A stretch of DNA of 64,000 bases from positions 230,262-294,261 of the forward strand of contig JBFMDH010000001.1 in the NCBI GenBank assembly GCA_040754075.1, written 5' to 3'. Shown piece after piece: positions 2,553 through 42,283 of the stretch. The first letter of the stretch is position 1; each line of letters begins with the position of its first letter. The notes under the pieces were generated by a model. That model was not told the DNA's origin and did not search any database. It saw only the letters and a list, made by a program, of their open reading frames with translations. The position numbers and the translations under genes were made by a program. This DNA comes from Acidobacteriota bacterium. Its GTDB lineage: Bacteria; Acidobacteriota; Blastocatellia; UBA7656.

Positions 2553-2638
2553 GTCTAATGCCGCGATTGACCGGACGCGATTAGCACTGATTGCATGAGA
2601 GCCGCGGAGTTACGCGCTCCGGTAATCGCTGGTCAGGC
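2553..2638 (-). other. attC recombination site
   Basis: Imperfect palindrome with 7-base core boxes at each end. Read on the minus strand: GCCTGAC (R'' type) at 2632-2638 and ATTAGAC (R' type) at 2553-2559, with inner arms built around GCGATTACCGG and CCGGTCAATCGC. It sits directly between two same-strand cassette genes. Both core boxes depart by one base from the RYYYAAC/GTTRRRY consensus. Confidence 0.75.
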
Positions 2639-3105: not shown

Positions 3106-3198
3106 GCCTAACGCCCCGCGTAATCGGGCGCGCGTGCGGCACTAAAAGAAACTATGAGAAGTCCGCTTCGCGCGCTCCAGTTCACGCCATTGTTAGGC
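3106..3198 (-). other. attC recombination site with perfect core boxes
   Basis: GCCTAAC at 3106-3112 and GTTAGGC at 3192-3198 bound a 93-base imperfect palindrome with a CGCGCGC-rich middle. Both boxes fit the integron consensus (RYYYAAC and GTTRRRY) and are exact complements. It separates two same-strand genes. Confidence 0.9.
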
Positions 3199-34675: not shown

Positions 34676-35368
34676 CTATCGTTTGCCCGGGTTAATGAGG
34701 TGGCGTTCAAAAACGCTGGCGAAATGCCCGCTCACTTTTTGCGCAACTTCCGATAAATCGACTGGCCTGCCCAGTAATTTTTCGATAGACGTTACGCCTT
34801 TATCGGTTATTCCGCAAGGCACAATCATTTTGAAATAGTTCAAATCGGTGTTCACATTCAATGCGAAACCGTGACTGGTTATCCAGCGGGCAATCCGCAC
34901 GCCAATTGCTGCAATCTTTTTATCGCCAACCCAGACGCCCGTGAGTCCGCGAATGCGCGCGCCTTCAATGCCATATTCGGCAATCGCGCGAATCAAGACT
35001 TCTTCAAGGTCGCGCACATAACGATGGACATCCTGACGGTCGGGTTTGAGATTGATAATCGGATAGCCGACGAGTTGCCCTTCGCCGTGATAGGTGACAT
35101 CGCCGCCGCGCCCGATCTCGAACACTTCGATGCCTCTTGAATTAAGGGTTTCCTGATTTAATAAAATATGCGAAGCCTTGGCGCTGCGTCCGAGCGTGAA
35201 GACGTGATTATGTTCAAGCAGAAAAAGCCTTTCATTGCCTGAGTTCTCTTTCAGTTCTTCGACGGCGCGTTCCTGCAACCCGAGTCCTTCGCTGTATGGC
35301 ACGCGACCGAGATATTGCGCCTCGCATTCGCGAAGCTGTGCTTTAACTAAATGCATTGATGATTCCAT
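34676..35368 (-). CDS. lipB: Octanoyl-[acyl-carrier-protein]:protein octanoyltransferase
   Basis: 230 codons from ATG 35368; an ATG at 35356 is an alternative. LipB motifs: 'FLLEHNHVFTLGRSAKASH', 'RGGDVTYHGEGQLVGYPIIN' with the conserved Gly-His, and 'WITSHGFALNVNTDLNYF' followed by 'IVPCGITDKGVTS' with the catalytic Cys. It moves octanoate from ACP to lipoyl domains, such as the two on the E2 protein at 40511-42283. It stands alone upstream of the second cassette array. Confidence 0.95.
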   Translation of the reverse strand: MESSMHLVKAQLRECEAQYLGRVPYSEGLGLQERAVEELKENSGNERLFLLEHNHVFTLGRSAKASHILLNQETLNSRGIEVFEIGRGGDVTYHGEGQLVGYPIINLKPDRQDVHRYVRDLEEVLIRAIAEYGIEGARIRGLTGVWVGDKKIAAIGVRIARWITSHGFALNVNTDLNYFKMIVPCGITDKGVTSIEKLLGRPVDLSEVAQKVSGHFASVFERHLINPGKR

Positions 35369-35469
35369 CACCGAAATTTTAACTGGCAAGTGGCAAAGAA
35401 GAAATAGTAGAAGCGTCAAGGCGGGTTGATGGGGGGTATCAAAAAGGCGCGATTAAAAATGGGACTTGC

Positions 35470-35553
35470 TTTGGCGCGCTGCGACAGTAAAGTCGTACCC
35501 CGGTAGAGTCATACTCTCTCGTAGTGTCATAGTCTGTCGTAGCGTCATACTCT
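35470..35553. repeat. Degenerate short tandem repeat
   Basis: On the minus strand a word of about 17-18 bases related to GTATGACGCTACGACAG recurs four times with substitutions (GTATGACGCTACGACAG, CTATGACACTACGAGAG, GTATGACTCTACCGGGG, GTACGACTTTACTG). It begins where the IS110-type reading frame ends. Confidence 0.6.
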
Positions 35554-35687
35554 GCGTCGCAGTTTTTGCGCAATCGCGGTAATCGTCGCCGACTGGGGTT
35601 TGATAATCGCTTCACTGAGCAGTTTGCTTTGCGAATCCAAAACGGCAACGTTGATGCTTGATGGACATCCAGTCCGCCATACCCCAT
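35545..35687 (-). pseudogene. N-terminal fragment of an IS110-family transposase
   Basis: It starts 'MGYGGLDVHQAS', the first DEDD-motif region of IS110/IS1111 transposases, then shifts frame. In the next frame follow 'NVAVLDSQSKLLSEAI' and 'IAQKLRRRV', as in the family. About 48 codons remain, with one frameshift near 35655. No terminal repeats or other transposase domains seen. It lies next to the terminal attC of array 2. Confidence 0.7.
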
Positions 35688-35720
35688 CGGTCACTCCTTT
35701 CCCTAATAAATTGGGTTTTT

Positions 35721-35771
35721 GCTAACTCCAAAATATCACCAAGGGGCGACCTTATTCATATTACGTTAGGC
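35721..35771 (-). other. Terminal attC-like site of array 2
   Basis: On the minus strand GCCTAAC at 35765-35771, seven bases after the stop of the last cassette gene, and GTTAGC at 35721-35726. Inner arms AATAT..AAGG and CCTT..ATATT pair. Short (51 bases) and lacking the usual GC-rich middle. Confidence 0.6.
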
Positions 35772-35778
35772 GCTTTCC

Positions 35779-36312
35779 TTAAAATTCATAGATTCTTCGT
35801 TCTGAAGATACTTGGGGCAAATCCAATATCAGCCATTGGTACTGTTCATCGTAACCCTGAACTCTTGCTGTTACAAAATGCCCTTTGCCCATGACAAAAC
35901 TCTCTCTTGTGGAGGCTTTGCAAGCGTGATAATCCGCTACACCCAAAATGCTGTTGCCTAAATCTATGATTGCTCCTTGAGGGAGGAATACTTCGATATA
36001 GCCGCGTACTTGATCACCTGGTGAGTATGCAAGTTTGGTCAAGTGCCAACGCCCAGCATTATTTTTCAAGTGTCGCTCCCAGTAGTGAGTAAACTCACTC
36101 AAGTCAATCTTCTGGACTTCCTCGATTGAATCATAGGCACAATCACCCTCTGCAAGCATTACGCCCCACTTCGGGTATTTAATATTTGAAGCAATAATGG
36201 CATCATCGTTGACAATGATTTCTCGAATAGCAACGACATTGAGAGCTTCCACATAACGCATCCCAGAAAACAAATCGCTGTCATTATAATATTTGTAATA
36301 TCTATGAGTCAT
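35779..36312 (-). CDS. Hypothetical protein with S1/OB-like C-terminal domain, integron cassette
   Basis: 177 codons. The N-terminal 100 residues are not recognised ('RYVEALNVVAIREIIVNDDA', 'WGVMLAEGDCAYDSIEEV'). The C-terminal 70 look like an OB/S1-type barrel: 'VRGYIEVFLPQGAIIDLGNS', then 'GVADYHACKAS' and 'KGHFVTARVQGYDEQYQW'. S1-like domains bind RNA, so an RNA-related role is possible but untested. Last gene of the array in transcription direction. Confidence 0.6.
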   Translation of the reverse strand: MTHRYYKYYNDSDLFSGMRYVEALNVVAIREIIVNDDAIIASNIKYPKWGVMLAEGDCAYDSIEEVQKIDLSEFTHYWERHLKNNAGRWHLTKLAYSPGDQVRGYIEVFLPQGAIIDLGNSILGVADYHACKASTRESFVMGKGHFVTARVQGYDEQYQWLILDLPQVSSERRIYEF

Positions 36313-36326
36313 TGCGGTTTCCTGAT

Positions 36327-36358
36327 GCCCAACGCCCCGCTGGACGCATTGGTTATGC
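36327..36358 (-). other. Truncated attC site
   Basis: GCCCAAC (36327-36333) and GTTATGC (36352-36358) are only 18 bases apart. The outer sequence matches the other sites (CAACGCCCCG..GCATTGGTT), but the central stem-loop is missing, as if deleted. Confidence 0.55.
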
Positions 36359-36405
36359 TGCGCCCGCCTTCGACATCCTCATTTGGTACCATTTCACCGC
36401 TTCCT

Positions 36406-36780
36406 CTAACCCTTCGGCCAAATTATCATCACCACAATCATCGGCGCTGCAGCCAATAATACTGAGAATAATAAGCCTGCACTTGCTTCCCCTCGTCGCT
36501 CCGCACGCACATTCATTACTATGCCTATTAACGTCAGTATCAGGCTCGATAGCCCCTCACTGGCATATAGACTGAATGTTGCATACCCGATGTGGATACC
36601 CAATGCCCCTCCTATAACTGTCAAAGCGAACAAGATGAAGAGGAGCGCAGACCCGGCAAGGAAGCCCGTTTTTGCATTGTAGATACGTGCGAGGAGTATG
36701 AGCAGGAGTTGAGGCAAGGCTAGAGGGAGGATAATAATTACCCAAGCTGTAGTAAGGCTGATTAAAATTGTCCTCTCCAT
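36406..36780 (-). CDS. Small membrane protein, integron cassette
   Basis: 124 codons, mostly hydrophobic, with about four membrane segments: 'LISLTTAWVIIILPLALPQL', 'FLAGSALLFILFALTVIGG', 'LSSLILTLIGIVMNV' and 'LLFSVLLAAAPMIVVMI'. No family recognised. It lies between two attC sites in the same orientation as all other cassettes of the array. Membrane-only cassettes may act in immunity or as small-molecule transporters, but nothing here decides that. Confidence 0.6.
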   Translation of the reverse strand: MERTILISLTTAWVIIILPLALPQLLLILLARIYNAKTGFLAGSALLFILFALTVIGGALGIHIGYATFSLYASEGLSSLILTLIGIVMNVRAERRGEASAGLLFSVLLAAAPMIVVMIIWPKG

Positions 36781-36812
36781 AGTAGATCACCGATTTGCAC
36801 AGATATCCAGCG

Positions 36813-36899
36813 GGCTAACGTTCGACATCACCGGGCGCGAACGACGCTGATTTCAGGTGAACCAGGGTTCGCGCGCTCCACGGCATTGACCGGTGAGGC
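36813..36899 (-). other. attC recombination site
   Basis: GGCTAAC at 36813-36819 and GTGAGGC at 36893-36899 bound an 87-base imperfect palindrome with the typical GGGCGCGAACG and GTTCGCGCGCTCC inner arms. One box departs from consensus by one base. Confidence 0.75.
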
Positions 36900-36905
36900 G
36901 CGGCT

Positions 36906-37259
36906 TCAAACATGAAAGATGACTGCTTTTCGATCCATCTCGATGAAATCAAAAATCGCAAATCCTTCTGCTAATTTTTCAAGGTTCGCCAAAAAAAAGG
37001 TGTGCAACTCTTGGTTCTTGATATTCCCTGTCGATACCAACAACAGTTTGTATGGCTTATGATTCAAGTGAAAAGAGTTGACGAAATCCGCATCTTTCCT
37101 AATGACGATGTATCCTTCGCGGATCGAAAGCTCATTGATAACAGAATCCGGCGTGCGGTTGCCAAGCGGCAAATCAAGCGTGTGAATTGCCTCAAACCCT
37201 TCCTCAATGAGTGATTGAGCAAGACGACGCGGCAATTGGGCATCAATCAGAAACTTCAT
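36906..37259 (-). CDS. DUF5615 PIN-like toxin, integron cassette
   Basis: 117 codons. 'MKFLIDAQLPRRLAQSLIEE' with an early Asp, 'DLPLGNRTPDSVINEL', and 'IVIRKDADFVNSF' are the acidic positions of the DUF5615 PIN-like family. Members are predicted ribonuclease toxins paired with DUF433 antitoxins, as here: the start overlaps the antitoxin stop by four bases. Toxin-antitoxin cassettes are known to stabilise integron arrays. Confidence 0.85.
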   Translation of the reverse strand: MKFLIDAQLPRRLAQSLIEEGFEAIHTLDLPLGNRTPDSVINELSIREGYIVIRKDADFVNSFHLNHKPYKLLLVSTGNIKNQELHTFFLANLEKLAEGFAIFDFIEMDRKAVIFHV

Positions 37260-37486
37260 ACCAAAGCCGGTTCGATTCGTTTGATTTGACTGAGTTTCGT
37301 GGCAAAGGATAAAGCGGCAAGAATATCCTCTCGTTCAAGATCCTCATAGTCAGCCAGGATTTCTTCTGGAGTCATTCCGGAACTGAGTAACTCAAGCAGC
37401 ATTTCAACGGGATAGCGTAGCCCCCGGATGCAGGGTTTGCCGTGACAAATATCTGGATCAATGGTGATTCGTTGAGCAAGTTCCAT
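37256..37486 (-). CDS. DUF433 antitoxin, integron cassette
   Basis: 76 codons from ATG 37486, preceded by AGGAGG. Family signature 'ITIDPDICHGKPCIRGLRYP' and 'LSSGMTPEEILADYEDLERE', a short winged-helix-like DNA-binding fold. It probably binds its own promoter and neutralises the DUF5615 partner. Each strand of this pair shares one cassette, bounded by attC at 36813-36899 and 37554-37647. Confidence 0.85.
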   Translation of the reverse strand: MELAQRITIDPDICHGKPCIRGLRYPVEMLLELLSSGMTPEEILADYEDLEREDILAALSFATKLSQIKRIEPALV

Positions 37487-37553
37487 ACGATACCTCCTGA
37501 GCAAAATCATATCACAGGCTGGTCGCTTTCGATTTGCGCTTCGAGTGATAAGC

Positions 37554-37647
37554 GCCTAACGGTTGGGATGACGCGGCGCACGCCGAACACTGAAAGAAAT
37601 CATACAAAACTCGCTTCGCGCGCGCGCGTCGAACCGATTATTATGCC
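37554..37647 (-). other. attC recombination site, first of a tandem pair
   Basis: GCCTAAC at 37554-37560 and a degenerate ATTATGC at 37640-37646 enclose arms GGTTGGGATGACGCGGCGC and GCGCGCGTCGAACC. The next attC begins only 14 bases further. Confidence 0.7.
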
Positions 37648-37660
37648 GATTAAAAGGGCG

Positions 37661-37753
37661 CGTTAACGCTCCCGTTCAGCGGGCGCGCGAACGGCCTCAC
37701 AAGTATAGATGAGAACCGCGCGGCGCGCGCTCCGCTGCAACGGGTTGTTAGAC
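37661..37753 (-). other. attC recombination site, second of a tandem pair
   Basis: CGTTAAC at 37661-37667 and GTTAGAC at 37747-37753, with arms CCCGTTCAGCGGGCGCGCG and CGCGCGCTCCGCTGCAACGGG. The 14 bases between this site and the previous one hold no gene, so they enclose an empty cassette or a deletion scar. Confidence 0.8.
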
Positions 37754-37758
37754 CCCTT

Positions 37759-38478
37759 TCAGGAAGGCCAGTCTTGTTGTGCTCTCCACAACTCATACTT
37801 TTCCCATTTGCTCTTCAGCCTCATTATGTCTGCATCAATGCATTGGTTTAGAAACAGTTTTGCTCTGACCCCATTCACTCTGTAACGAAAAGTATAGGTG
37901 TTAGGGTAAAGTGGGTTGTGGCTCCGAAGGCGATATATGCCTGCCTTATCTGTCCGAGCCGTCGGGTAGTTTTCATCAAAGAAATCTCGAATCCACGCCA
38001 GAATATCTTCTGATCCGCTAGTGAAAGTTATACTGACGTAAGGCTGTTTTCTATCCTTATCAAATAGATTAATGCATCCGTCGCCGTCGAGGTATCCAAC
38101 GACGAATGCCAGGATGCAATCGTTATCGGCTAAGGTCGGAGGTTGTAGGGTGTGGGACTTCTTGGGGGTTACGTTGAAATTCAATTCTAAGTCTCTAAGC
38201 CATTCCGAAACTCCGCAGATTTGCAGACCGGCAAGAGAAGAATAGCTTTGGAAAGCACTCTTATTCTTCTTCATCTCGACTATTGGTCCATCATACTGGA
38301 CAGCAGACGCAAAGCGGCGAAGGTGATCCCTGTGCTTTTGGGCTGTATATAGCAAGAGCTGGTTTTTCTTTGCATAGAGACACCCATCAGCCGCTATGAA
38401 CCCAGCCCAATATGAGTTTTCAGGGTTCGGAAGCTTAAAGTATGAACTGTCTTTGTTATAAATGGCTCTGTTCTTCAT
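37759..38478 (-). CDS. LAGLIDADG homing endonuclease-like protein, integron cassette
   Basis: 239 codons. Two LAGLIDADG-type helices are present: 'YWAGFIAADGCLYA' near residue 23 and 'AFVVGYLDGDGCINL' near residue 124, each with the metal-binding acidic residue. Spacing of about 100 residues between them and total length fit a single-chain (pseudodimeric) endonuclease, though the second helix carries the stronger match. It is not inside an intron or intein here but is a free-standing gene between two attC sites. The ATG is 22 bases after the attC end. Confidence 0.85.
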   Translation of the reverse strand: MKNRAIYNKDSSYFKLPNPENSYWAGFIAADGCLYAKKNQLLLYTAQKHRDHLRRFASAVQYDGPIVEMKKNKSAFQSYSSLAGLQICGVSEWLRDLELNFNVTPKKSHTLQPPTLADNDCILAFVVGYLDGDGCINLFDKDRKQPYVSITFTSGSEDILAWIRDFFDENYPTARTDKAGIYRLRSHNPLYPNTYTFRYRVNGVRAKLFLNQCIDADIMRLKSKWEKYELWRAQQDWPS

Positions 38479-38499
38479 TGAGCGGAACCTCGTTAAGGG

Positions 38500-38586
38500 G
38501 TCTAACGACCCGATTGACCGGGCGCGATAAACATTGATTGAACGAGAACCGACAAGTTCGCGCTCCGGTCGAATCGCTGGTTAGAT
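38500..38586 (-). other. attC recombination site with perfect core boxes
   Basis: GTCTAAC at 38500-38506 and GTTAGAT at 38580-38586 with arms CGATTGACCGGGCGCGA and TCGCGCTCCGGTCGAATCG. Both boxes fit consensus. The stop codon (TAA) of the next cassette gene lies inside the GTTAGAT box. Confidence 0.92.
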
Positions 38587-39204
38587 GTTCGGCTTGCGGA
38601 CGATAGGCTTGTCTCCTAAGGGGGATTTCTTTAGCTTCTCAAGCTCCTGCCGCTGTAATTCCAGGTTGGATGGCCGCTCTCGGTTGGTGTTATCAACGAC
38701 CTCACGTTTCAGGATTTTCCCCGCCTTGACCTCAAACAGTATGTCCCGCTCGTACACCGACCCGTAGCCCATGTGGACGTACTCTAGCTCTTTGCCGTCT
38801 GGGACGCGCAACTCCCCCGAGAACCATGACGCTAACACCATTCCGTTAACGACCCTCTTCCCGAACAATTCGCGCAACGTGACCCGGTGGCATCCATTAT
38901 TCCTACGCGACTTGGAACGACCGCCGCAGAACCAGGAATCGATCTTGCTCAGGTACAGTTTGTCGCCGATGATTTCCCACGTAGCGACATAGCCACGCCA
39001 GTTACCGCTGCTCATCGTGCCTGGTCTCACCCAAAACTGCGGCCGTTTGTCCTCGTCCGGGTAATAATCTTCTAACGGATTGGAGAACAGGTCGTAAGTT
39101 TTCCCGGCGTAGACGAGCACGTCGGCCTGCTGCCCAGTGGCGAAGGCATGCATGGGAAACAGCATTAAGAGAAATAAGCTAATAAGCGCTTTTTGTATAT
39201 TCAT
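38581..39204 (-). CDS. Exported protein of unknown function, integron cassette
   Basis: 207 codons from ATG 39204; an upstream in-frame start would lie within the attC. A signal peptide ('ALISLFLLMLFPMHAFA') is followed by a beta-rich domain with a Cys pair ('SWFCGGRS' and 'NNGCHRVTL'), a basic tail and a C-terminal 'PLGDKPIVRKPNI'. No family recognised. The stop codon overlaps the core box of its own attC, a tight arrangement typical of cassettes. Confidence 0.65.
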   Translation of the reverse strand: MNIQKALISLFLLMLFPMHAFATGQQADVLVYAGKTYDLFSNPLEDYYPDEDKRPQFWVRPGTMSSGNWRGYVATWEIIGDKLYLSKIDSWFCGGRSKSRRNNGCHRVTLRELFGKRVVNGMVLASWFSGELRVPDGKELEYVHMGYGSVYERDILFEVKAGKILKREVVDNTNRERPSNLELQRQELEKLKKSPLGDKPIVRKPNI

Positions 39205-39229
39205 AATCCAATCTCTCAACAGAAAGAAC

Positions 39230-39321
39230 ATCTAACGCTCCACATCACCGGGCGCGCGAACGGCATTGGTGGAACGATATGAACTACGCTTCGCGCGCTC
39301 CGGTGCATGTGGTTGTTAGAC
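39230..39321 (-). other. attC recombination site with perfect core boxes
   Basis: ATCTAAC at 39230-39236 and GTTAGAC at 39315-39321, with arms CCACATCACCGGGCGCGCG and CGCGCGCTCCGGTGCATGTGG. Strong extended pairing with a few unpaired bases, as expected of attC. Confidence 0.92.
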
Positions 39322-39415
39322 GGCGGCTTGTTCACTATGCGCTTCTTGTTACGGCTTAACTCAATATGGCTATCCGCTGCCAACGGGGTTAGCCGCTCAA
39401 TATGCCAAGAGGATT

Positions 39416-39718
39416 CTATTTCCATTTGACATTGAGGACTTGGACAATAGCTTCCATTTCAGTCCTTAGGATATTCATTCGTTGTTTAACTCTTTCCGTC
39501 TTGCTTTCTATCTCATGAAGCTTCACACGGAATTCCTGGTCAACATCCGACATACGCCTGAGGTAGGTAGCATCTCTTGCTCGCTCCCAATTTACAAGGG
39601 TTTGAGATTCTTCGCGCTTCAAGTCAGATAGCTCTTGCTGAAGGTTGGAGACCTCGTTTTGTCTTCGCTCGTATTCAAACCGAAGCCTGTCCACAGGATA
39701 TTCATCGAATTCACTCAT
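39416..39718 (-). CDS. Coiled-coil protein, integron cassette
   Basis: 100 codons, almost all predicted coiled coil: charged heptads such as 'LRFEYERRQNEVSNLQQEL' and 'RVKLHEIESKTERVKQRMNI'. No signal peptide. The ribosome-binding site GGAGGAG is perfect. This is the first cassette of array 2 in transcription direction; the 94 bases between its stop and the attC at 39321 have no separate gene. Family not recognised. Confidence 0.65.
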   Translation of the reverse strand: MSEFDEYPVDRLRFEYERRQNEVSNLQQELSDLKREESQTLVNWERARDATYLRRMSDVDQEFRVKLHEIESKTERVKQRMNILRTEMEAIVQVLNVKWK

Positions 39719-39776
39719 GGCTCTCCTCCCACAATAATATTACTGTTCATACTTCGCTAAGGCTCGTTGAGAAGCC

Positions 39777-39805
39777 GTCTAACATGAATTCGGCGAATTA
39801 ACGCC
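39777..39805 (-). other. Upstream end of cassette array 2: single core box
   Basis: On the minus strand the core GTTAGAC (39777-39783) is preceded by GGCGTTAATTCGCCGAATTCAT. The same arrangement (..CCGGACAATTCAC then GTTAGGC) occurs at 4078-4096 for array 1. No integrase gene is found on either side. Confidence 0.55.
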
Positions 39806-40250
39806 ATCTACTAATGGATGGATCTGGCTAAATATGTAAAGTTCCATCTACTAATAGAAATTTCAGACCATATAAATCCATATGGTGTTCTTCCCGGCAA
39901 TCCGTTGCCTTAATCGCAATTGTGAGGCTGCGCTATCATGCATTGTCCCTGCCTTTGCCGCGTGGCTCAAAAAAATTTACTGCCGTGTTGACCCGGTTGA
40001 TGCTTCATTTTGCAGCATCAGCTTTCCGAATTGGATTGCTTGAAAGGGATAGCTTAAAACTTCGCCATCATACGCCTGAGTCTTTCATCGCGCAAGTTGA
40101 CGGGTTCAGTTTTTCTACCAGTGGCGCAAAAAGAAAAGCAGCAAACGACAAATTATGTTATCGCTTGCTGCCTCGGTTACGAAAAATTACCGTTTGACTG
40201 ACGAAGTGAATGCGCCTCTTATTTACAAAACGCCTTCGCCTTTTTTCTAT
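39806..40250. other. Non-coding stretch upstream of array 2
   Basis: No supported gene. It contains two copies of CCATCTACTAATRGA (about 39803 and 39844), an inverted repeat ACCATAT/ATATGGT near 39870-39890, and otherwise unremarkable sequence. A read-through frame at 39922-40197 has no start context and no domain resemblance. A promoter for the cassettes may lie here. Confidence 0.5.
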
Positions 40251-40510
40251 AAAATTCAAGTTGCCAGTTGCGCAAAGCCCTCTGGAAAAACGCCATTGCC
40301 CCAAAGGGGCAATGGAAATTAGCCTGTGGTAAAGCCACAGGTTAGTGAGCCAGTCAAAACTTTCGTGCCCTGAAGGGGCGCAGGAAGTTCATTGAATCCT
40401 GCGCCCCTTCAGGGCACTGCCTTTGATAGCGCCCCTTGCGATCCAGCGGCTGCACCGCAGGCTAATCTCCACAGCGCCTCCGGCGCAGATTAAGGAACGA
40501 GCAACTTGGA
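40251..40510. repeat. Composite hairpin element, copy B
   Basis: Begins AATTCAAGTTGCCAG like the copy at 24227, then GCCCCAAAGGGGC, GCCTGTGGTAAAGCCACAGG, a long stem of GCCCTGAAGGGGCGCAGGA with its complement TCCTGCGCCCCTTCAGGGC, GCGGCTGCACCGC and GCGCCTCCGGCGC. It ends GAGCAACTTGGATT, an inverted match to the start. Modules and order are shared with copy A. Confidence 0.75.
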
Positions 40511-42283
40511 TTATGAAGTGAATTCGCCTTTTTCGATGATGTCGCGCACATAAGCCAAAAATTGGTCAGCGTCTGCGCCATCCACTACGCGATGGTCATA
40601 ACTCAAACTCAGCATGCCAATCTGGCGAATGGCAATCGCATCATCAACCACCACCGGACGTTTTTTGATACCGCCAACCCCCAAAATCGCCACTTGCGGT
40701 TGATTGATAATCGGCAAGCCGATCAACCCACCAAATACGCCCGGATTGGTGATGGTAAAGGTGCCGCCCTGCACTTCATCGGGCTTGAGCTTTTTATTGC
40801 GCGCTCTATCGCCCAAATCATTTACCGCGCGGGCAATCCCAAGCAGCGATTTTTCATCGGCATTGCGAACCACAGGCACAATCAAACCCCAATCGAGCGC
40901 CACCGCGACACCGATGTTGTAATCTTTTTTGTACACAATCTGATCGCCCCACACCGACGAATTGACGATGGGGAATTTCTTCAAGCCTTCAATCACCGCT
41001 TTGATGATGAACGGCATGTAGGTGAGTTTGACGCCATCGCGTTCCAAAAATTCTTTCTTGAGTTTATCGCGCAACGCCGATGTCTTGCTGTAATCGACTT
41101 CAATCAGCGAATAGACATGCGCCGAAGTATGTTTGCTTTCGACCATGCGTTCGGCAATCTTGCGTCGCATGATGCTCATCGGTTCGATTTCGACGCGGTC
41201 TTTATCGCTGAACGGCTGCGCGCCATATTCGACTGTCGCCGGCGGTTTCGCTTGCGGTGGCGGAATCGGAATAGATGGCGTAGCTGCCGGGGTCGCCGGC
41301 GCAGTCACCGCAGGCGCTTGAACCTGTGCGCTCACTTGCGCGGTTGCGGCTTTAGCTGCGCCGCCCGATTCGATGAATTGCAGAATATCGTTTTTGGTGA
41401 CGCGCCCGCCCGCGCCTGTGCCTTGAACCTGGGCGATGTCAACCTTGTGTTCTTCGGCAATTTTGCGAACCACCGGCGACGATTTCACTTTGCGTAAATC
41501 CTCGGCGCTCATTTCGGCAGCAGGCTGTTCGGCAACCGGAGTTGGCGGCGTCGGTGGCGCAACCGGAGTTGGCGGCGGCGCGACTGCCGCAGGCGGTGTA
41601 GGTTGAACAGGCTCAGGCGTAGAAGTGGCTACCGGAGCCGGTTTGGCGTCACCACTGCCGATGATGGCGACCACTGTGCCGACCGCAACCGTCTGGCTCT
41701 CCTGAACTTTGATTTCGAGAAGCGTGCCCGATACCGGCGCGGGGATTTCCGCATCAACCTTGTCCGTCGAAATTTCAAACAGCGGCTCATCGCGTTTGAC
41801 GCTTTCGCCGACCTGCTTGAGCCAGCGCACGATGGTGCCTTCGGTGATGGATTCGCCCATCTGCGGCATCTTCACTTCTTCACCGGTTGCGCCGTTTGTT
41901 GCAGCCGGAGGCGGCGCGGTCTGCGCCGGAGGCGTTGGCGGTTGAACTGCTGCCGCAGGCGGCGCAGGTTGCCCGTTTGGTTGTGGCGCAGGTGGCGCGG
42001 CAACCTCAGCGGGCTTGGAATCGGCTACCGGAGCCGGTTTGGCGTCGCCGTCACCGATGATGGCGACCACTGTGCCGACGGCGACGGTTTCGCCTTCCTG
42101 CACTTTAATTTCCGTCAATGTGCCTGAGACCGATGAAGGGATTTCCGCATCGACCTTATCGGTAGAAATTTCAAAAAGCGGCTCGTCGCGTTTAACCGTC
42201 TCACCCACTTTTTTGAGCCATCGAACAATCGTTCCTTCCGCGATGGATTCGCCCATCTGCGGCATCTTCACTTCTTCTGCCAT
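40511..42283 (-). CDS. 2-oxoacid dehydrogenase complex, E2 acyltransferase with two lipoyl domains
   Basis: 590 codons. Two lipoyl domains with nearly identical sequence, each with the lipoylated Lys in 'ISTDKVDAEIP' (residues 1-77 and about 135-212), joined by A/P-rich linkers. Then a peripheral subunit-binding domain ('SSPVVRKIAEEHKVDIAQVQ') and a catalytic domain ending 'LSYDHRVVDGADADQFL' with the His and Asp. It transfers acyl groups to CoA; the E1 subunits at 42387 and 48608 suggest a pyruvate or branched-chain/2-oxoglutarate complex, not resolved. It is translated after E1-beta in one operon. Confidence 0.95.
   Translation of the reverse strand: MAEEVKMPQMGESIAEGTIVRWLKKVGETVKRDEPLFEISTDKVDAEIPSSVSGTLTEIKVQEGETVAVGTVVAIIGDGDAKPAPVADSKPAEVAAPPAPQPNGQPAPPAAAVQPPTPPAQTAPPPAATNGATGEEVKMPQMGESITEGTIVRWLKQVGESVKRDEPLFEISTDKVDAEIPAPVSGTLLEIKVQESQTVAVGTVVAIIGSGDAKPAPVATSTPEPVQPTPPAAVAPPPTPVAPPTPPTPVAEQPAAEMSAEDLRKVKSSPVVRKIAEEHKVDIAQVQGTGAGGRVTKNDILQFIESGGAAKAATAQVSAQVQAPAVTAPATPAATPSIPIPPPQAKPPATVEYGAQPFSDKDRVEIEPMSIMRRKIAERMVESKHTSAHVYSLIEVDYSKTSALRDKLKKEFLERDGVKLTYMPFIIKAVIEGLKKFPIVNSSVWGDQIVYKKDYNIGVAVALDWGLIVPVVRNADEKSLLGIARAVNDLGDRARNKKLKPDEVQGGTFTITNPGVFGGLIGLPIINQPQVAILGVGGIKKRPVVVDDAIAIRQIGMLSLSYDHRVVDGADADQFLAYVRDIIEKGEFTS

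What the first reader, a model, noticed from the sequence alone, without database searches (positions are those of the whole stretch)
37759..38478. LAGLIDADG endonuclease gene carried as an integron cassette
A two-motif LAGLIDADG protein stands between attC sites at 37661-37753 and 38500-38586, not inside an intron or intein. Homing endonucleases usually move by cutting empty alleles. As a cassette it could cut unoccupied attC or array sites and so bias inheritance toward itself, combining two mobility strategies.
Basis: partly seen in the sequence, partly recalled or inferred. Interest (0 to 1): 0.65.

Follow-up and report, generated by a model that had tools for sequence, protein, structure and literature searches.

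The report
Phage-type homing nuclease in integron cassette
A gene for a DNA-cutting enzyme of a type mostly found in phages sits, apparently intact, in a small array of movable gene cassettes in an acidobacterium; the combination looks unrecorded, but nothing suggests that the enzyme attacks the cassette sites themselves.

Summary
ORF 37759-38478(-) is a 239-aa, two-motif LAGLIDADG protein with both catalytic aspartates (D31, D133) and a confidently predicted monomeric LAGLIDADG fold (pLDDT 94). It fills one cassette between genuine attC sites (37661-37753, its own; 38500-38586, the preceding cassette's). The attCs are on the minus strand, co-directional with the gene, and supported by covariation. 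It lies in a 5-attC array without a nearby integrase (a CALIN), inserted between the E2 and lipB genes, which are adjacent in 5 of 6 family relatives. The genome holds about 40 attC sites and, on another contig, an integron integrase. Its relatives are mainly phage free-standing endonucleases (at most 37% identity); none of about 170 homologous loci is flanked by recognisable attC sites. It is not in an intron or intein. Best reading: a phage-type homing endonuclease gene caught as integron cargo and moved by integrase, with its natural target elsewhere. The proposed drive by cutting empty attC sites is unsupported: about 40 host attCs, including the two flanking it, stand intact. Its target is unknown. 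I found no earlier report of a LAGLIDADG cassette in an open-access library.

The parts
37759..38478 (-). LAGLIDADG endonuclease gene (239 aa; catalytic D31 and D133 intact), cargo of the cassette
   Evidence: ORF; Pfam; PHROG; alignments; structure
37661..37753 (-). attC of the LAGLIDADG cassette; its R' core is atypical (GTTAACG instead of GTTAGAC)
   Evidence: CM hits; alignment and fold
38500..38586 (-). attC of the preceding cassette (216-aa gene); its R' end starts the LAGLIDADG cassette
38581..39231 (-). preceding cassette gene, 216 aa, no family match; overlaps both neighbouring attC sites by a few bases
39230..39321 (-). attC of the first cassette of the array (100-aa coiled-coil-like ORF)
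   Evidence: best scoring, 101.5 bits
39416..39718 (-). first cassette ORF, 100 aa
37554..37646 (-). attC with degenerate R'; directly follows the LAGLIDADG cassette as a gene-less cassette
   Evidence: 70 bits with R2
36906..37510 (-). two-gene cassette: DUF433 (37256-37510) and DUF5615 PIN-like (36906-37259), toxin-antitoxin-like pair
   Evidence: Pfam (2.5e-27 and 3.3e-20); pair reading from general knowledge
36813..36899 (-). degenerate attC of the DUF433/DUF5615 cassette
   Evidence: 29.9 bits
35779..36780 (-). two further small ORFs (124 aa, 177 aa) at the far end of the array; no attC recognised there by the models
40511..42283 (-). 2-oxoacid dehydrogenase E2 gene, upstream neighbour in transcription order; fixes one edge of the insertion
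34676..35419 (-). lipB, the other edge; adjacent to E2 in 5 of 6 relatives

Best explanation
A phage-type free-standing LAGLIDADG endonuclease gene was captured as an integron gene cassette and is now carried as passenger cargo in a small integrase-less cassette array (CALIN) lodged between E2 and lipB in an acidobacterium (the class containing 'gp4' Acidobacteria). Movement of the gene, within arrays and into this locus, is by the integron integrase acting on its attC (inferred). The protein is very probably still a monomeric LAGLIDADG nuclease that makes a staggered double-strand break at a target of roughly 20 bp (inferred from intact fold and active site and from what is known of the family). 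That target most likely lies in phage or other foreign DNA, where its relatives live, and not in attC. In its present place the gene therefore has integron mobility, while homing by target cleavage is probably dormant. SHOWN: gene, attC sites, orientation, intact residues, predicted fold, phage affinity, insertion in a normally contiguous gene pair, an integrase elsewhere in the genome. INFERRED: activity, target, mode of arrival.
For: Single-gene cassette: ATG 21 bases after the preceding attC and stop 5 bases before its own attC. attC covariation and orientation matching the gene. Integron integrase at G000:C59, TIGR02249 472.6 bits against cut-off 265. About 40 attCs in the genome. E1-beta, E2 and lipB contiguous in G002-G006 with E2-lipB gaps of 36-452 bp, against 5.1 kb here. 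Homologues: at least 560 viral-contig stretches against 84 genome-contig stretches (the collections differ in size); nearest rows in the tree are viral; best matches 35-37% identity. Active site invariant. pLDDT 94.
Against: No activity or target was measured. The tree placement is weakly supported (86/75) with long branches. Only one copy is known, so selection on the gene cannot be estimated. The integrase contig ends about 700 bp upstream of intI and no attC was found beside it, so a complete integron was not shown. Promoter-like sites are no more than chance, and two terminator-like hairpins stand between E2 and the array, so expression is uncertain.
Confidence: 0.62

Rival explanations
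1. Antiviral use: the cassette gives the cell a rare-cutting nuclease that cleaves incoming phages lacking the matching endonuclease gene, much as phage homing endonucleases exclude competing phages. Selection for defence keeps it in the array.
For: Phage-dominated family; restriction and other phage-resistance functions are among the commonest cassette cargoes (PMC8618304; PMC9668308); catalytic residues intact. PADLOC 'HEase' models match weakly (2.4e-5 and 5e-4).
Against: No defence genes recognised in the neighbouring cassettes tested; one target per enzyme makes a narrow defence; single cassette occurrence in 396 phylum genomes sampled.
Confidence: 0.17
2. One reading: the enzyme cuts unoccupied attC or array sites, and repair from the occupied array copies the cassette in, so it drives its own inheritance.
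For: Active site intact; cassette boundaries are sharp, so an exact empty junction exists in principle.
Against: About 40 host attCs, including both flanking ones, are intact. No homologue sits beside a recognisable attC. Array order changes, so a stable empty allele is lacking (general knowledge).
Confidence: 0.05
3. Excision penalty: the enzyme recognises the junction formed when its cassette is lost, so loss exposes a cut site, as toxin-antitoxin cassettes punish loss.
For: Toxin-antitoxin cassettes are held to stabilise sedentary arrays (PMC9137128); a toxin-antitoxin-like pair lies two cassettes away. The junction would be hidden while the cassette is present.
Against: No direct evidence; needs an improbable match of specificity to one junction; family not linked to integrons.
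Confidence: 0.05
4. Domesticated or inactive: the LAGLIDADG fold is kept for DNA binding (as in the regulator WhiA), or the gene is decaying cargo.
For: WhiA is among the PDB fold matches; the protein lacks the N-terminal HTH region that most relatives have; expression signals weak.
Against: Both catalytic aspartates and the full fold are intact, no frameshift; some phage relatives also lack the HTH region (L101, L105-L108).
Confidence: 0.11

Closest known systems
Free-standing phage LAGLIDADG endonucleases (PHROG 4645), such as viral-contig ORFs L099-L107
   Same: Same domain, motifs and FN(V/I)TPKKS segment, not in intron or intein; up to 37% identity
   Different: Those lie in phage genomes without attC and most have an N-terminal HTH region; this one is in an attC cassette and lacks it
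CALIN / sedentary integron gene cassettes
   Same: attC structure and orientation, tight single-gene cassette, toxin-antitoxin-like neighbour, integrase elsewhere in the genome
   Different: Cargo is a LAGLIDADG endonuclease; the endonuclease cassettes I found reported are HNH or restriction types (PMC9137128)
I-Tsp061I (PDB 2dch), archaeal intron-encoded LAGLIDADG endonuclease
   Same: Best solved structure by sequence (3.3e-7) and by fold (4.6e-10)
   Different: Intron-encoded, 18% identity
Group II introns associated with attC sites
   Same: Another selfish element type linked to integrons (PMC7923331)
   Different: Ribozyme/retroelement; here no intron is recognised and the attCs are uninterrupted

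Membership tests
Integron gene cassette / CALIN | attC sites with R''/R' cores and imperfect hairpin with extrahelical bases | tested here: met
Integron gene cassette / CALIN | Gene co-directional with and just upstream of its attC | tested here: met
Integron gene cassette / CALIN | Cluster of attCs with no integrase nearby | tested here: met
   5 attCs in 36813-39321; integrase on a different contig
Integron gene cassette / CALIN | Recombination by IntI | not testable with these tools
   needs a recombination assay
LAGLIDADG homing endonuclease | Two LAGLIDADG motifs with catalytic acids | tested here: met
LAGLIDADG homing endonuclease | LAGLIDADG fold | tested here: met
   pLDDT 94; 2dch best match
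LAGLIDADG homing endonuclease | Sequence-specific DNA cleavage | not testable with these tools
   needs protein and cleavage mapping
Intron- or intein-encoded endonuclease | Lies in a group I/II intron or in an intein ORF | tested here: not met
   no Rfam match; stand-alone 239-aa ORF between attCs
   models trained on this genome's attCs, plus a core-based generic scan
   intact host attCs argue against attC itself

The most novel reading that the evidence does not exclude
The endonuclease recognises the exact junction left when its own cassette is excised, so that loss of the cassette exposes a cut site. It would be a cassette that stabilises itself by DNA cleavage (or re-homes into that junction), joining integrase mobility to homing.
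Probability: 0.05. Interest if true: 0.75.

Novelty: new member of a known kind. Interest (0 to 1): 0.38.

Why it matters
If the gene is active it shows that integrons can pick up phage selfish nucleases and give them a second, homing-independent way to move, and it adds LAGLIDADG enzymes to the known cassette cargo. It also offers one clean, testable case for whether cassette nucleases act on arrays or on phages. The array's insertion between E2 and lipB gives an empty-site comparison for how integrase-less arrays arise.

Tried and rejected
Intron or intein location: rejected. Chance attC-like hairpins: rejected by covariation and slid controls. Close homologues in genomes: the first genome scan found none; 147 relatives gave only a dnaE-intein-associated relative; 396 phylum genomes gave no other cassette copy. 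attC beside homologues: none; seven core-pair hits in a generic scan fold weakly, show no flanking pattern and look like chance. attC on the integrase contig: none. Array at the same locus in G001: E2 and lipB are on different contigs with no attC there, so uninformative. Papers: no LAGLIDADG cassette found; the library lacks most subscription journals.

Full report
OBSERVATION. The ORF at 37759-38478 on the minus strand encodes 239 aa and matches Pfam LAGLIDADG_3 (1.5e-7) and LAGLIDADG_1 (5e-5), both over the curated cut-offs, and PHROG 4645 'endonuclease' (9e-22). Both motifs are complete, and the catalytic aspartates D31 and D133 are invariant in a 72-member alignment. The AlphaFold2 model has mean pLDDT 94 with the double LAGLIDADG topology. 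The best solved match by sequence and by fold is the homing endonuclease I-Tsp061I, 2dch, and viral predicted structures match better still.

attC SITES. The sites at 37661-37753 and 38500-38586 are real. Four sites of the window align at 78% mean column identity and fold to one hairpin with two extrahelical bases and seven pairs with compensatory change. The extrahelical bases lie on the 5' arm of the minus strand; by comparison with classical attC sites (own knowledge) this gives minus-strand orientation, the same as the gene. A model built from them finds 38 matches in the genome (at least one is a palindromic site seen again on the other strand), and 23 of them give covariation far above shuffled and slid controls. 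The second model finds 40 matches in this genome and 4-44 in each of six family relatives. Sites used to build a model match it by construction, so the covariation controls, not the bit scores, are the independent evidence.

ARRAY. In transcription order: 100-aa ORF, attC 39321-39230; 216-aa ORF, attC 38586-38500; LAGLIDADG gene, attC 37753-37661; a gene-less cassette with attC 37646-37554; DUF433/DUF5615 pair, attC 36899-36813; then two more ORFs. The LAGLIDADG start codon is 21 bases after the preceding attC, and its stop codon is 5 bases before its own attC. That is an ordinary one-gene cassette.

LOCATION. In five of six same-family genomes E1-beta, E2 and lipB are contiguous, with 36-452 bp between E2 and lipB; in the window that interval is 5.1 kb and holds the array. 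In G001 the two genes are on different contigs without attC. Two terminator-like hairpins stand between E2 and the array, so read-through from the operon is uncertain. An integron integrase is on contig C59 (472.6 bits against cut-off 265); no attC was recognised beside it and the contig ends shortly upstream. Off-target insertion by an integrase located elsewhere in the genome is one of the proposed origins of CALINs (PMC8618304); that it happened here is inference. The host belongs to the class with 'gp4' Acidobacteria: the same-class relative L010 (G115) carries the same 269-aa protein as L091, whose record is titled Acidobacteria gp4.

RELATIVES. One copy in the genome. A first genome-collection scan with the single protein found none. 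With an alignment, 84 genome-contig stretches and at least 560 viral-contig stretches encode relatives. The nearest rows in the tree are viral, though weakly supported and on long branches. Most relatives have an N-terminal extension, in part helix-turn-helix-like; this protein and a few phage ones do not. None of the loci carries an attC by two covariance models or convincingly by a generic core-pair scan. These models were trained on this genome's attCs and could miss very different attC types. Many PF14528 matches in the class are in long ORFs that look like inteins, and in the seven family genomes none listed lies near a listed attC other than the present case (lists truncated).

MECHANISM. 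The anatomy shows integron-type mobility as cargo. An intact active site makes nuclease activity likely. A general attC target is unlikely, because the chromosome carries about 40 attCs, including those touching the gene. The remaining self-directed option is the exact empty junction, which cannot be tested here. I take a target in phage or other foreign DNA as most likely, from the family's distribution.

NOVELTY. Endonuclease cassettes of other types are reported (HNH and restriction types, PMC9137128). No paper in the searched open-access library describes a LAGLIDADG cassette. Absence there is weak evidence. I rate it a new member of a known kind: an integron cassette with unusual cargo.

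Noticed in passing
L091:89-4462 and L247 (G001:C107): dnaE in two genomes of this acidobacterial class is split into three overlapping ORFs: dnaE-N with an intein N-part, an HTH-LAGLIDADG ORF, and an intein C-part with dnaE-C. This looks like a fractured gene with a split intein and a separate endonuclease ORF.
   Followed up: partly
L257:234-2914 and L258:4384-7409 (G464, G443): A related LAGLIDADG ORF lies directly downstream of a tyrosine recombinase, in the same three-gene order, in two genomes of another acidobacterial group, suggesting a mobile element with integrase plus LAGLIDADG protein.
   Followed up: partly
window 35420-40510: The array lies between E2 and lipB, which are contiguous in 5 of 6 relatives: a clear empty site for the whole insertion.
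   Followed up: yes
window 2553-2638 and 3106-3198 (-): A second small attC pair in the window, around 148-aa and 264-aa ORFs without family matches.
   Followed up: partly
L209 and L210 (G000:C49): A large attC-rich array (about 17 attCs over 21 kb) in the same genome, with an Arr rifampin ADP-ribosyltransferase-like ORF at L209:18595-19326 (Pfam 1.3e-82) in or next to it.
   Followed up: partly
window 37656-37673: The attC of the LAGLIDADG cassette ends in a near-palindrome (GGGAGCGTTAACGCGCCC on the minus strand) instead of the usual GTTAGAC core, and a gene-less cassette follows at once.
   Followed up: no
window 40365-40417: A perfect 21-bp inverted repeat with an 11-base loop stands between E2 and the array.
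   Followed up: no
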